Of a stretch of DNA of 32,723 nucleotides, positions 15,357-19,370 are shown one piece after another. Made by a program: the position numbers and the translations under genes. Under the pieces are notes generated by a model that did no database searches, was not told where the DNA came from, and saw only the letters and a program-made list of their open reading frames with translations. The stretch spans positions 1 to 32,723 of the forward strand of contig JALZUR010000022.1 in NCBI GenBank assembly GCA_023301025.1, written 5' to 3'. How positions within the stretch are numbered: the stretch's first letter is position 1; each line of letters begins with the position of its first letter. Source of the stretch: Bdellovibrionales bacterium (lineage in GTDB: Bacteria; Bdellovibrionota; Bdellovibrionia; Bdellovibrionales; UBA1609).

Positions 15357-18300
15357 TTGAAAAGAACTGCTGCACTAATTTTTACTATATTCTTTTTTTG
15401 CCTTAATTTTACGCATTCGTCTGAAGTAGATCCGGCTGTCACCGAGTATTACAGTCACATACTTGGTCTTAACACAACCGACTACTCGGCTTTCGAAAAA
15501 CACTTAAATCAAATTATAGATAAACCCACTGTTGAACTTAGAAACGTACTTAGAAATCACTTAACTACTATCACCGAAGAAGATCCAGAAAGTATTAAAC
15601 AGCACCCCTCAGACTTTTTAAATTTAATTTTGTTGATACTAGACACCTTAGAAAAAAAAGACATAGGAGAGCCCAATGATGCAAGACATCTAGCCGGCCT
15701 TAACAATTGGGCTGAACAGGTTTTTATGGACAGTGATCTTAAAAAAATTCAAGACAAATCTTATTATCTGCACATGGGTTTAGTAAACAGAAGTAAAACC
15801 CCACTTCCGACCATAACAGAAAGATTTCAAGACGAATCAAGACAGCTTATTGTATATGATGCAGATACAAACCCGGCAGCTAAACAGCGAAGATCCTTTG
15901 AGATTAAAATTTCAAGAGTTGAACATTTCTATGATCGAGTGAAAAAAGAAGTTATCGGTCAAGATAGAATCTTACAAGATTTGCAAAATCAATTTCTAAT
16001 AGACAGTATTATTGATGGTCAACGTGACAAACCTGAAGTGTTTTATTTAATGGGTCTACCAGGCACCGGTAAGGACACAATTACTGAATCATATGTAGAT
16101 GCACTATGGGCTGAAAAAGGAGCTCATAAAGAACACATGTTTTCTATGAACATCAGATCAAAAAATGACGTCTGGAGCTACTTTGGATCAGGTAAAGGAT
16201 ATATAGGCTCTGAGGAACTTCCAGCTTTTTTAAAATTTTTAGTGATGCACTCTGGTGGAAGATATCAGTTAAAAGAAATCAAAGATCGTTTTGGTTCAAA
16301 AAAACAGATAGTAGTTAAAGGCAACAACTGGAATCAATCTATGACTGGAGCTATGCCTCACAAAGCAGTTGTGTTTATTAATGAAGCTCATAACATTCCT
16401 AAAGAGATAAAAGACAATGTTTTAAAACAGGCCATTGAAAAAGGACTGTTCTTTATCACTAACCCAGGGGATGATCCTGATGCTGTTGATAAACTTGAGA
16501 TTCCTATAACTTTTATATTTGCCTCAAACGAAGGAATTGGACTTTTAGAACCAAGAGAAAAAAATGGAACTCGCATAGGAGAGCCCTTATCTTATGATGA
16601 GATTATTGAAAACTATAACCGAGTCTCAGAGGACAAACAGCTCTTAAAACAAACTATTTTAGACTACAATGGTGAAAAAAATGACCCCTCTACACCTGAA
16701 GCACCAGGAACATCTGAAGAGTTTTTATCGCGTGTTCCGTCTAACCGAATTCACCTTATGAAACCTTTATCTCCACATGATTTAATACGCATAACAAGAC
16801 TTATCGAGCAGTCTTTAATGGATAGATTTAGAAAAACAAAAGGAGAGATGGGTAAATTTGATATAAAACTTCACCCCAGTCTTATTGAGTTTATCACAAC
16901 TTATAAAATTATAGCCTCCGAGGGAGCAAGAACTTTAAAAGACCGAATGGAATCTTATATTTTAAAACCTTTCACAGAAGCCGTAATTGCTGGTCAAATT
17001 CCAGAAAATTCTGGTACTTTAAGTCTTAATATTAGCTTAGTGAAAAACAAAAATGGAAGTAAAAGTTTAAGTTTTGAAATCCATGAAGGTAAACGTAAAA
17101 AGAAATTTGATCGCCCTGCACACATTAGATTTTTTAAGGTTATAGAAGATACTAAAAAAGATATCCCAAAACCACCTTTAGAAAATGAAACTATTGAAGA
17201 GATATTAACCTTAAAAAACTCCATAACTTCAAATGTCTTTGGGGTTGAGCACATAATTGATCGCTTAACTGAAAGCCTTTTAAGCTCTGAATCTGAATCA
17301 AGAAATACAGACTCAAAAAGGCCTGCAACTGTCATGGCATTTTTAGGAAAAACCTCAACAGGTAAAACAGAGACTGCAAAGCAGTATGTAAAAGCAAGAT
17401 ATGGTGAAGACTCTAGGCCTGAAGTTATTGACTTTAACGGTGTGAGAGATCTTTATGCCATGCAGTCAAAGATATTAGGTACAACAGACTCTAGAAATAA
17501 CCCCATCGCTTCTACTTTTATGAAAGCTTATGACAGAGCCAACGGAAAAATAACTTTTATTTTTGATGAGGCTGCAAATGCACCAAAAGAAATTCTTAAA
17601 GGACTCTATGAAATTTTAAGAGAGAGTGTGGCTACGGGATTTTCTGATGGCAAAGCAAGACCGATGAAGAATGTTACAATTATCTTAACTGGAAATGCAG
17701 GTGAGGAGATCTACCAAGCTATCCCAGAAGGCTTATCTACTACAAGCTACGGACAAGCCATGACGGCAGTCTTTAATATCTTTTCAAAAGATGAAGCTTT
17801 ACAACATAAAATTTTACAAAACACTTTTCCAGAGGCATTGATTGCAAGACTTGGACGAAACATCTACCACTTTGGACCTTTGGGTCATGCTGATAAAAGA
17901 AGAATCGCACAGCTTAAGCTTTTACAAGGCATTGAAAACTTAAAGCCAACTGACAGTGAAAGAGGATGGAATTTAATCTTTTCATCAAAAAAAGATCTTT
18001 TAGAGAGCTTTTACATGATTGAAGAAGAAGCATATAGCAACGACTATCAAGGAGCTTCAATTGATAAATTTGTAAGAGAAGGGCTTATTGATTCTATAAA
18101 AGCAAAGCTTTTAAGTGCAGGAGTTAAAAATAATACTGATGTTTACTACTCAATTGGAGAGTTAAATAAAAACAAAGCCTCTAACGATCCGCCATACAGA
18201 ACAATTACACTTAAGGCTGAGACAGGAGAGCACATTGATTTTGATGCTCAAGTTTTAAGAGCAATAGAGGAATCTCCAAAAAAAGAAATTAAAAAAGTAC

Positions 18301-19370
18301 TTGTAGCGTATCATGAGGTTGGACACGAACTTGTGAGCCATTACTACTTAAATGAAATAGTAGATTCTAGTAAAATCACTATTATTCCTGGGGTTACAAC
18401 AATTGATGGACAAATCATAGCATACAGCGGTGTTCGAGTTGGAGATCAAACTTTTGAGGCAATTACGAGTAAAGAATTTGTTTTAAGACGACTTGCTGTT
18501 TTAGTTGGTGGCTACGTTGCTGAAGAACTTGTAACTATAGGCAGTCATTCAAGTTCAGGGAAGTCTAATGATATTACACGAGCTAGTGCTATAATTCATG
18601 AAGCTGTCTTAAAATGGGGCCTTTCAAAACGGTGGGGCAAAAAAGCACTTCCTAGTAAAATGGACCTAGATGACTATGTTGAAAAGTATCTATCAGAAGA
18701 TGAGAAGATAAAACTTGAGGTGATCACTAGAGATTGGTTGTCAACGGCTGAAGAGATGGCTGAAATTGCAATAGTTTCTAATCTTGACGGAGCATTTTTA
18801 AACCTTACAAACAACCTTGCAAAAAGTGGAGAGCTTTTAAAAGATGAGATTAAAGCAATTTATGATGATACAGAGTTGGTTCTAGATTCTAACCATCCAG
18901 TATCAAATGGTTTTAACCCTAAGAAAACCTATTTAAGAATGAAGAAGCAACTAGTGACAGAAATTAACACTGAGTTTTTGAGTAACACTGACTATATTTA
19001 TGACATATCTTCTGATCATAGCCTTTATGAAAAAGCCTATACCGATCTACAAAAAAATTCTGAAGCTAAAGACTTTAAAGCTTGGACTGAGTTAACTGAT
19101 CATGAAAAACGTGTGGCAGAAATTTTAATAAGTGGAATGGTTGAGCCTTCAAGTCTTTTTCCTAAACTTTCAAGCACCTTTTGGAATCTTGATGAGGTAG
19201 CTGATGTTGAAGAGATTCAAAATCAAAGAGTATTAGATGCCAAAGAAGGTGTTATTGATTTTAAAAAATTTAAAATTAAAGGCCAAACAAATAAGCCAAA
19301 AGGTTTAAGATCTACACTTACTTTACAGAAGCAGAGCTCCAGTCTTACCTGCAATGGGCTACTTAGATAA
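15357..19370 (+). CDS. Exported tandem Clp-type AAA+ / M41 (FtsH-type) zinc protease fusion
   Basis: The 1337-residue protein joins modules not normally found together. Residues 1-22 (KR, then a hydrophobic core ending THSS) form a signal peptide or single membrane anchor. A helical domain (about 25-185) precedes AAA+ module 1 (about 195-600). Module 1 has Walker A GLPGTGKDT (K239), pore loop GYIG (Y282), Walker B with Asn for Asp (FINEAH, N342-E343), and an HSP100-like small domain (EGARTLKDR). AAA+ module 2 (about 625-940) has Walker A GKTSTGKT (K670), intact Walker B D737-E738, and sensor TGN. An FtsH-type M41 peptidase follows, with HEVGH (H986, E987, H990) and third ligand D1072 in SNDITRA. 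A tail of about 130 residues ends the protein. It is an unfoldase-protease by inference; substrate and location are unknown. It is a single-gene unit with its own promoter, TTG start and terminator. Confidence 0.9.
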   Translation: MKRTAALIFTIFFFCLNFTHSSEVDPAVTEYYSHILGLNTTDYSAFEKHLNQIIDKPTVELRNVLRNHLTTITEEDPESIKQHPSDFLNLILLILDTLEKKDIGEPNDARHLAGLNNWAEQVFMDSDLKKIQDKSYYLHMGLVNRSKTPLPTITERFQDESRQLIVYDADTNPAAKQRRSFEIKISRVEHFYDRVKKEVIGQDRILQDLQNQFLIDSIIDGQRDKPEVFYLMGLPGTGKDTITESYVDALWAEKGAHKEHMFSMNIRSKNDVWSYFGSGKGYIGSEELPAFLKFLVMHSGGRYQLKEIKDRFGSKKQIVVKGNNWNQSMTGAMPHKAVVFINEAHNIPKEIKDNVLKQAIEKGLFFITNPGDDPDAVDKLEIPITFIFASNEGIGLLEPREKNGTRIGEPLSYDEIIENYNRVSEDKQLLKQTILDYNGEKNDPSTPEAPGTSEEFLSRVPSNRIHLMKPLSPHDLIRITRLIEQSLMDRFRKTKGEMGKFDIKLHPSLIEFITTYKIIASEGARTLKDRMESYILKPFTEAVIAGQIPENSGTLSLNISLVKNKNGSKSLSFEIHEGKRKKKFDRPAHIRFFKVIEDTKKDIPKPPLENETIEEILTLKNSITSNVFGVEHIIDRLTESLLSSESESRNTDSKRPATVMAFLGKTSTGKTETAKQYVKARYGEDSRPEVIDFNGVRDLYAMQSKILGTTDSRNNPIASTFMKAYDRANGKITFIFDEAANAPKEILKGLYEILRESVATGFSDGKARPMKNVTIILTGNAGEEIYQAIPEGLSTTSYGQAMTAVFNIFSKDEALQHKILQNTFPEALIARLGRNIYHFGPLGHADKRRIAQLKLLQGIENLKPTDSERGWNLIFSSKKDLLESFYMIEEEAYSNDYQGASIDKFVREGLIDSIKAKLLSAGVKNNTDVYYSIGELNKNKASNDPPYRTITLKAETGEHIDFDAQVLRAIEESPKKEIKKVLVAYHEVGHELVSHYYLNEIVDSSKITIIPGVTTIDGQIIAYSGVRVGDQTFEAITSKEFVLRRLAVLVGGYVAEELVTIGSHSSSGKSNDITRASAIIHEAVLKWGLSKRWGKKALPSKMDLDDYVEKYLSEDEKIKLEVITRDWLSTAEEMAEIAIVSNLDGAFLNLTNNLAKSGELLKDEIKAIYDDTELVLDSNHPVSNGFNPKKTYLRMKKQLVTEINTEFLSNTDYIYDISSDHSLYEKAYTDLQKNSEAKDFKAWTELTDHEKRVAEILISGMVEPSSLFPKLSSTFWNLDEVADVEEIQNQRVLDAKEGVIDFKKFKIKGQTNKPKGLRSTLTLQKQSSSLTCNGLLR

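What the first reader, a model, noticed from the sequence alone, without database searches (positions are those of the whole stretch)
15357..19370. Export-signal protein fusing two Clp/HSP100-type AAA+ modules to an FtsH-type M41 protease
Seen: an N-terminal KR plus hydrophobic segment, two P-loops (K239, K670), HSP100-like pore loop GYIG, then HEVGH and D1072 of an M41 peptidase. Known: FtsH joins one AAA+ domain of its own class to M41, while Clp unfoldases recruit separate serine peptidases. A Clp-type tandem motor with an M41 peptidase in one chain is an unusual combination. By the positive-inside rule the motor would lie outside the cytoplasm, where ATP is scarce. In a predatory bacterium, ATP from the prey cell could be used; that is speculation. 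Other explanations are an anchored enzyme with the opposite topology, or a family using nucleotide only for assembly.
Basis: partly seen in the sequence, partly recalled or inferred. Interest (0 to 1): 0.85.

Follow-up and report, generated by a model that had tools for sequence, protein, structure and literature searches.

The report
Exported Clp-type motor–protease fusion
Bacteria of the Bdellovibrio group make a large protein that joins two ATP-driven protein-unfolding rings of the Clp type to an FtsH-type protein-cutting domain and exports it out of the cytoplasm with an odd single-cysteine tail, which matters because such ATP-driven machines are not expected where ATP is thought to be absent.

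Summary
The 1337-aa ORF is N-terminal signal sequence, about 160 aa of mostly helical sequence, two AAA+ modules of ClpB-D2 type (not FtsH type), an M41 peptidase, a flexible tail. AAA+ profiles hit ClpB D2 and give no hit to the organism's own FtsH; the M41 profile hits only FtsH's protease part. 56 relatives from many Bdellovibrionota families keep the architecture; AAA2's catalytic residues are invariant in all 56, the zinc site intact in 55.

Export is well supported: signal sequences are retained although N-termini diverge, and the bodies are almost cysteine-free (37 Cys observed, about 730 expected). The same tail occurs on two unrelated exported families of ATP-enzyme type (tandem-AAA Clp proteins, ABC1 kinase-like proteins) and on some adjacent exported genes, but on 0 of 102 exported proteins in random stretches.

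Best reading: an extracytoplasmic, ATP-powered unfoldase–metalloprotease, one of several exported ATP-using enzymes sharing a tail tag. ATP source and site of action are unknown. The predator-ATP idea is not supported: the genus that looks like Bdellovibrio lacks the protein. Occurrence outside the phylum could not be surveyed.

The parts
15343..15352 (+). G-rich ribosome-binding-like stretch (GGGGGGAG) just upstream of the TTG start
   Evidence: sequence
15357..19370 (+). gene of the exported (AAA+)2-M41 protein, 1337 aa, TTG start
   Evidence: 56 long relatives
15357..15419 (+). signal sequence MKRTAALIFTIFFFCLNFTHS (residues 1-21; cleavage site inferred)
   Evidence: sequence; relatives have unrelated N-termini but again a charged + hydrophobic + small-residue segment
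15420..15908 (+). N-terminal region, residues 22-184, predicted mostly helical with low confidence; no Pfam family
15909..17021 (+). AAA1, ClpB-D2-type module (approx. residues 185-555): Walker A GLPGTGKDT, pore loop GYIG, Walker B FINE, sensor-1 N391, Arg finger R459, sensor-2 R525
17169..18140 (+). AAA2, ClpB-D2-type module (approx. residues 605-928): Walker A GKTSTGKT (K670), Walker B FDE (E738), sensor-1 N780, Arg finger R831
18291..18857 (+). Peptidase M41 domain (residues 979-1167), HEVGH 986-990 and third zinc ligand D1072
19350..19367 (+). C-terminal tag C1332-N-G-L-L-R; the only cysteine of the mature protein
19407..19432 (+). terminator-like hairpin directly after the gene (also matches on the other strand); gene probably monocistronic

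Best explanation
The protein is exported through the Sec route, loses its signal peptide, and assembles outside the cytoplasm into a ring in which the two Clp-type AAA+ tiers unfold and thread protein substrates into an M41 zinc-protease chamber on the same chain. It thus works like ClpAP or FtsH, but with Clp motors and M41 in one polypeptide and on the other side of the membrane. AAA1 carries the aromatic pore loop, AAA2 the canonical hydrolysis site, so the tiers probably share gripping and power. A lone C-terminal cysteine in a conserved short motif (C-x-x-L-[L/F/Y]) serves as a sorting, anchoring or covalent-assembly tag that the protein shares with other exported ATP-using enzymes of the phylum. 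Shown by computation: domains, conserved catalytic residues, conserved signal sequence, cysteine depletion, conserved tag, sharing of the tag. Inferred: hexamer, ATP hydrolysis, substrate threading, location beyond the inner membrane. Unknown: source of ATP, compartment (periplasm, cell surface or another cell), chemistry of the cysteine.
For: AAA1 and AAA2 profiles hit ClpB D2 (domain E 3e-18 and 3e-40 at best) and give no hit to own FtsH; the M41 profile hits FtsH residues 415-600 (E 1.7e-31). Foldseek of models with mean pLDDT 80 and 82: ClpC, ClpB NBD2, Skd3 first. 56 relatives: AAA2 Lys, Glu, Asn, Arg 56/56; HExxH and Asp 55/56; AAA1 Arg finger 51/56. M41 domains of the 56 and those of 20 FtsH lie on two sides of a branch with 100/100 support, so one origin of the fusion is allowed. 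Export: signal sequences; core Cys 37 against about 730 expected. Tag: Cys near the C-terminus in all 56; 0 of 102 strictly signal-bearing proteins of random stretches have a lone tail Cys, 4 of 38 adjacent ones do. Same tail on exported tandem-AAA proteins and exported ABC1-kinase-like proteins.
Against: No experiment. Export rests on simple hydropathy rules and composition, not on a trained predictor or a reporter; 14 of 56 fail the strict signal rule, most of them fragments or without a usable N-terminus. ATP outside the cytoplasm is unexplained; the search for an ATP/ADP translocase family gave nothing, but its control was silent too. AAA1 has lost canonical Mg-binding residues, so it may not hydrolyse ATP. 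No hexamer was modelled.
Confidence: 0.7

Rival explanations
1. It is one of a set of enzymes delivered from the exporting cell into another cell (prey, host or competitor), where ATP is plentiful; the C-terminal cysteine tag is part of the delivery route. (A narrower version of the best explanation, differing in the site of action.)
For: Several exported families that need ATP share the tag or the neighbourhood: tandem-AAA, ABC1 kinase-like, and, untagged or less sure, circularly permuted ATP-grasp, PIN-PhoH, PrkA-like. The ATP need would be solved at once.
Against: No secretion system or target cell is identified; the genus that looks like Bdellovibrio lacks it; patchy distribution fits many roles; exported neighbours without ATP domains carry the tag too.
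Confidence: 0.3
2. A membrane-anchored enzyme whose AAA+ and M41 parts face the cytoplasm, like FtsH, with the hydrophobic segment as an anchor of opposite topology.
For: M41 is otherwise known on enzymes facing the cytosol or an ATP-containing compartment; ATP would be available.
Against: Basic residues precede the segment and small-residue cleavage-like sites follow it in most relatives; only one hydrophobic segment, whereas FtsH has two (established knowledge); 20-fold cysteine depletion of the body; tag shared with other exported proteins.
Confidence: 0.1
3. An exported zinc protease whose AAA+ modules are retained as a scaffold or nucleotide-independent holdase.
For: AAA1 has Asp after the P-loop Lys in 20 of 56 and Asn at Walker B in 40 of 56; AAA2 of this subfamily lacks the aromatic pore residue.
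Against: AAA2 Walker A Lys, Walker B Glu, sensor 1 and Arg finger are invariant in 56 of 56 at about 15-39% identity to this protein, which a mere scaffold would not require.
Confidence: 0.15
4. An ordinary FtsH variant or a chimeric gene made by misassembly.
For: The data are largely metagenome-assembled genomes; M41 is FtsH-like.
Against: Same architecture in 56 long relatives from many GTDB families; own FtsH and ClpB are separate genes; AAA not FtsH type.
Confidence: 0.01

Closest known systems
FtsH / m-AAA / i-AAA proteases (peptidase family M41)
   Same: M41 domain with HExGH and the third-ligand Asp; AAA+ motor and peptidase on one chain
   Different: two ClpB-D2-type AAA modules instead of one FtsH-type AAA; one signal sequence instead of transmembrane anchoring facing the cytosol; C-terminal Cys tag; M41 domains separated from FtsH by a fully supported branch
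ClpB/ClpC/ClpA (HSP100) unfoldases, incl. ClpAP/ClpCP
   Same: D2-type AAA+ fold, GYxG pore loop in AAA1, D2-small domain with sensor 2; tandem AAA motor coupled to a peptidase
   Different: two D2-type modules and no D1 in this subfamily; own metallopeptidase instead of recruited ClpP, no [ILVMF]GF docking-like motif in the window protein; exported
Torsins
   Same: exported HSP100-D2-related AAA+ proteins, a precedent for AAA+ outside the cytosol; unusual residue after the P-loop Lys (Asn in torsins, from memory; Asp here)
   Different: torsins lack a pore-loop motif and work with LAP1/LULL1 (PMC4999309); here a pore loop, two modules and a protease. The Torsin Pfam hit is below cut-off for the window protein, above it in the relative L032
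MYXO-CTERM / PEP-CTERM / GlyGly-CTERM sorting tags
   Same: C-terminal tag on Sec-exported proteins; MYXO-CTERM has an invariant Cys (PMC11980579)
   Different: no transmembrane helix and no Arg-rich end after the Cys; rare in sampled exported proteins, several carriers are ATP-using enzymes

Membership tests
FtsH family | M41 peptidase with HExxH + Asp | tested here: met
FtsH family | AAA+ module of FtsH (classical AAA) type next to M41 | tested here: not met
   profiles match ClpB D2, no hit to own FtsH; NCBIfam FtsH matches only 977-1161
FtsH family | N-terminal membrane anchor with catalytic part in the cytosol | tested here: inconclusive
   single signal-like segment with cleavage-like site and Cys-depleted body argue against it; topology itself not measured
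HSP100/Clp unfoldases | D2-type AAA+ module(s) with Walker A/B, sensor 1, Arg finger, sensor 2 and D2-small domain | tested here: met
   (AAA1 with Walker B D to N)
HSP100/Clp unfoldases | D1-D2 order with ClpP-docking loop (for protease partners) | tested here: not met
   both modules match D2 best; no [ILVMF]GF in the protein; a D1-like module is present in sister-group members L031/L032
HSP100/Clp unfoldases | ATP-dependent unfolding as a hexamer | not testable with these tools
   needs biochemistry
Torsins | exported single AAA+ without pore loop, activated by LAP1/LULL1 | tested here: not met
   two modules, pore loop, M41
MYXO-CTERM | Cys motif + transmembrane helix + Arg-rich end | tested here: not met
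   Cys present, no hydrophobic stretch in the last 60 aa of any of 56 (max 17-mer hydropathy 1.08)

The most novel reading that the evidence does not exclude
Bdellovibrionota have an extracytoplasmic set of ATP-powered enzymes (Clp-type unfoldases, Clp–M41 protease fusions, ABC1-type kinases and others) marked by a common C-terminal single-cysteine tag, implying an ATP-containing compartment or recipient cell beyond the inner membrane and a new tag-based sorting or anchoring route.
Probability: 0.4. Interest if true: 0.95.

Novelty: new variant of a known kind. Interest (0 to 1): 0.82.

Why it matters
Protein quality control outside the bacterial cytoplasm is held to be ATP-independent because ATP is scarce there. 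A widespread, conserved, exported Clp–M41 protease with intact ATPase sites contradicts that, or shows that the enzyme works where ATP exists, such as in another cell. The shared cysteine tail gives a handle to find the other members of the system and the machinery that reads the tag, and makes the question directly testable.

Tried and rejected
Ordinary FtsH: rejected by profile tests. Misassembly: rejected by 56 relatives. Phage or plasmid origin: no tblastn hits. Defence system: only weak generic AAA matches in PADLOC. The tail as a general export motif of these bacteria: rejected, 0 of 102 strictly signal-bearing proteins in random stretches; the strict DNA pattern S-C-K-x-L-F-stop in 59 genomes ended an ORF of at least 60 aa only twice, both lone-Cys proteins (AGY serine codons not covered); a looser pattern was dominated by chance. 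Conserved operon partner: none general; this gene sits alone between housekeeping genes with a terminator; in the sister group a neighbouring ~1000-aa exported protein recurs in four loci, three of them with an FGE-sulfatase domain. ATP/ADP translocase (TLC): 0 of 141 but the control was silent, so uninformative. A protein near one relative (L020 16196-18964, signal-bearing, AAA_2) has no close kin in the order.
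Full report
THE OBSERVATION. The ORF at 15357-19370 (+) is 1337 aa with a TTG start behind a G-rich ribosome-binding-like stretch. A terminator-like hairpin follows at 19407-19432. The neighbours are housekeeping genes on the other strand: a formamidopyrimidine-DNA glycosylase and an MFS transporter on one side, a SIS-CBS protein, CTP synthase and a cytidylyltransferase on the other. 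The gene therefore looks monocistronic. Pfam gives M41 at 979-1167 (E=7.9e-20) and ClpB_D2-small at 472-552. NCBIfam gives ClpV, ClpB and ClpA second-AAA regions at 603-930, and FtsH only over 977-1161. The genome (2.03 Mb, 97.5% complete) has separate matches with the lengths of FtsH and ClpB, and AAA_2 genes of ClpA and ClpX size.

WHICH AAA+ CLASS. Segment profiles built from the family were run against ClpB proteins of related genomes, the own ClpB and the own FtsH. AAA1 and AAA2 both match the D2 half of ClpB (best domain E 3e-18 and 3e-40), only marginally D1, and give no hit to the own FtsH. The M41 profile matches FtsH 415-600 at 1.7e-31. AlphaFold2 models of residues 22-605 and 598-1337 (mean pLDDT 80 and 82) have ClpC, ClpB NBD2 and Skd3 as leading Foldseek matches. 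FtsH appears for the second model from rank 13, aligned over the AAA plus M41 stretch.

THE FAMILY. 16 of the first 38 related genomes have a strong relative (mostly 31-39% identity in the best segment; 26-32% over the full alignment). A phylum survey (369 genomes) gave relatives in many GTDB families. I assembled 56 long members. They fall into two groups in the M41 tree (25, with this protein, and 31), and 20 FtsH M41 domains lie across a branch of 100/100 support. Members of the other group can be AAA-AAA-AAA-M41, with a ClpC-D1-like first module (L031, L032). The gene is patchy: none of 24 species of genus g36 carries it.

CATALYTIC RESIDUES. AAA2: Lys, catalytic Glu, sensor-1 Asn and Arg finger in 56 of 56. 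M41: HExxH and Asp in 55 of 56. AAA1: Lys in 49 (5 gaps), Arg finger in 51, sensor-2 Arg in 51. AAA1 is odd: the residue after the Lys is Asp in 20 members including this one, and Walker B Asp is Asn in 40. The aromatic pore loop is kept in AAA1 of most members of this group and lost from AAA2 of this group, but kept in AAA2 of many of the other group. A division of labour between the tiers is a fair inference.

EXPORT. N-termini are unrelated in sequence, yet complete members start with basic residues, a hydrophobic stretch and a small-residue site; 42 of 56 pass a strict rule and most of the rest are fragments or lack a usable N-terminus. Almost no member has another membrane-like segment. 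The bodies are almost free of cysteine: 37 Cys in 68,927 residues, about 730 expected at the frequency of cytosolic-like proteins in the same loci; other exported-like proteins there are not depleted.

THE C-TERMINAL CYSTEINE. All 56 members have a Cys near the end, 1-21 residues from it, in the context [S]-C-x-x-[L]-[L/F/Y] (position +4 is L, F or Y in 49). No hydrophobic stretch lies in the last 60 residues, so it is not a MYXO-CTERM-like tripartite tag (PMC11980579). In random stretches of related genomes, 0 of 102 strictly signal-bearing proteins have a lone tail Cys, against 4 of 38 adjacent to the gene and 1 of 71 four or more genes away. The small numbers make the neighbour enrichment suggestive only. 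The sharing by unrelated families is stronger. Exported tandem-AAA proteins without M41 (nine examples, 637-932 aa, one cut at its start; 6 core Cys, 74 expected) end for example in SCTELLKGAK, SCTKLFY, SCMALLR, QCRKVFR, TCRFLFN, while the cytosolic ClpA-like relatives found in the same search (L214, L215) do not show this signal-plus-lone-Cys pattern. Exported ABC1-kinase-like proteins (1071-1725 aa) end for example in SCKSLF, YCKKFYGAK, RCERVLSH, DCAKFFKDIKRSWD. In G272 a tandem-AAA gene and the AAA-M41 gene are neighbours (L110). Other exported ATP-enzyme types lie near some relatives without a clear tag: circularly permuted ATP-grasp, PIN-PhoH, PrkA-like.

MECHANISM AND LIMITS. The simplest reading is an extracytoplasmic, ATP-driven unfoldase–protease that carries its own peptidase, one of a group of exported ATP-using enzymes with a common cysteine tail. 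The ATP source and the site of action are open. Delivery into another cell would solve the ATP problem and fits the set of enzymes, but no route or target was identified and the likely Bdellovibrio genus lacks the gene. No paper describing the architecture was found in the open library, which omits most subscription journals. Occurrence outside the phylum could not be surveyed.

Noticed in passing
window 23067-24320 (+) and 24311-25555 (+): Two overlapping tandem genes for exported trypsin-like proteases, 47% identical to each other, ten cysteines each and a Cys as next-to-last residue.
   Followed up: partly
window 9921-12571 (-): Two adjacent M16 (insulinase-type) peptidase genes.
   Followed up: no
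L110:12651-15395; L264:5467-8265; L265:1211-3763; L267:6589-9198; L269:3770-6523; L270:4314-6827: Second family of exported HSP100-like tandem-AAA proteins without protease domain, with the same C-terminal Cys tag.
   Followed up: partly
L263:6201-11171; L279:2196-7373; L280:3918-7133; L281:1983-6953; L282:2069-7069: Exported ABC1 (atypical kinase)-like proteins of 1071-1725 aa with the same C-terminal Cys tail.
   Followed up: partly
L123:1664-3235 and L126:1309-2832: PIN-PhoH (PhoH2-like) proteins that begin with a signal-peptide-like segment, next to a 308-309-aa protein with a hydrophobic N-terminus ending SCADLLKPDR / TCSDFLKPER.
   Followed up: no
L102:7897-11094: Signal-bearing circularly permuted ATP-grasp protein between two AAA-M41 genes of the two groups in one genome.
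   Followed up: no
L031:11459-14629, L113:11322-14630, L117:3049-6195: Exported ~1050-aa proteins with a C-terminal FGE-sulfatase domain directly downstream of second-group AAA-M41 genes; L032:5675-8455 is a relative with the Cys tag.
   Followed up: partly
L034:3453-7082: 1209-aa exported protein without Pfam match, one cysteine, ending AGSCKSLFR, directly downstream of an AAA-M41 relative.
   Followed up: no
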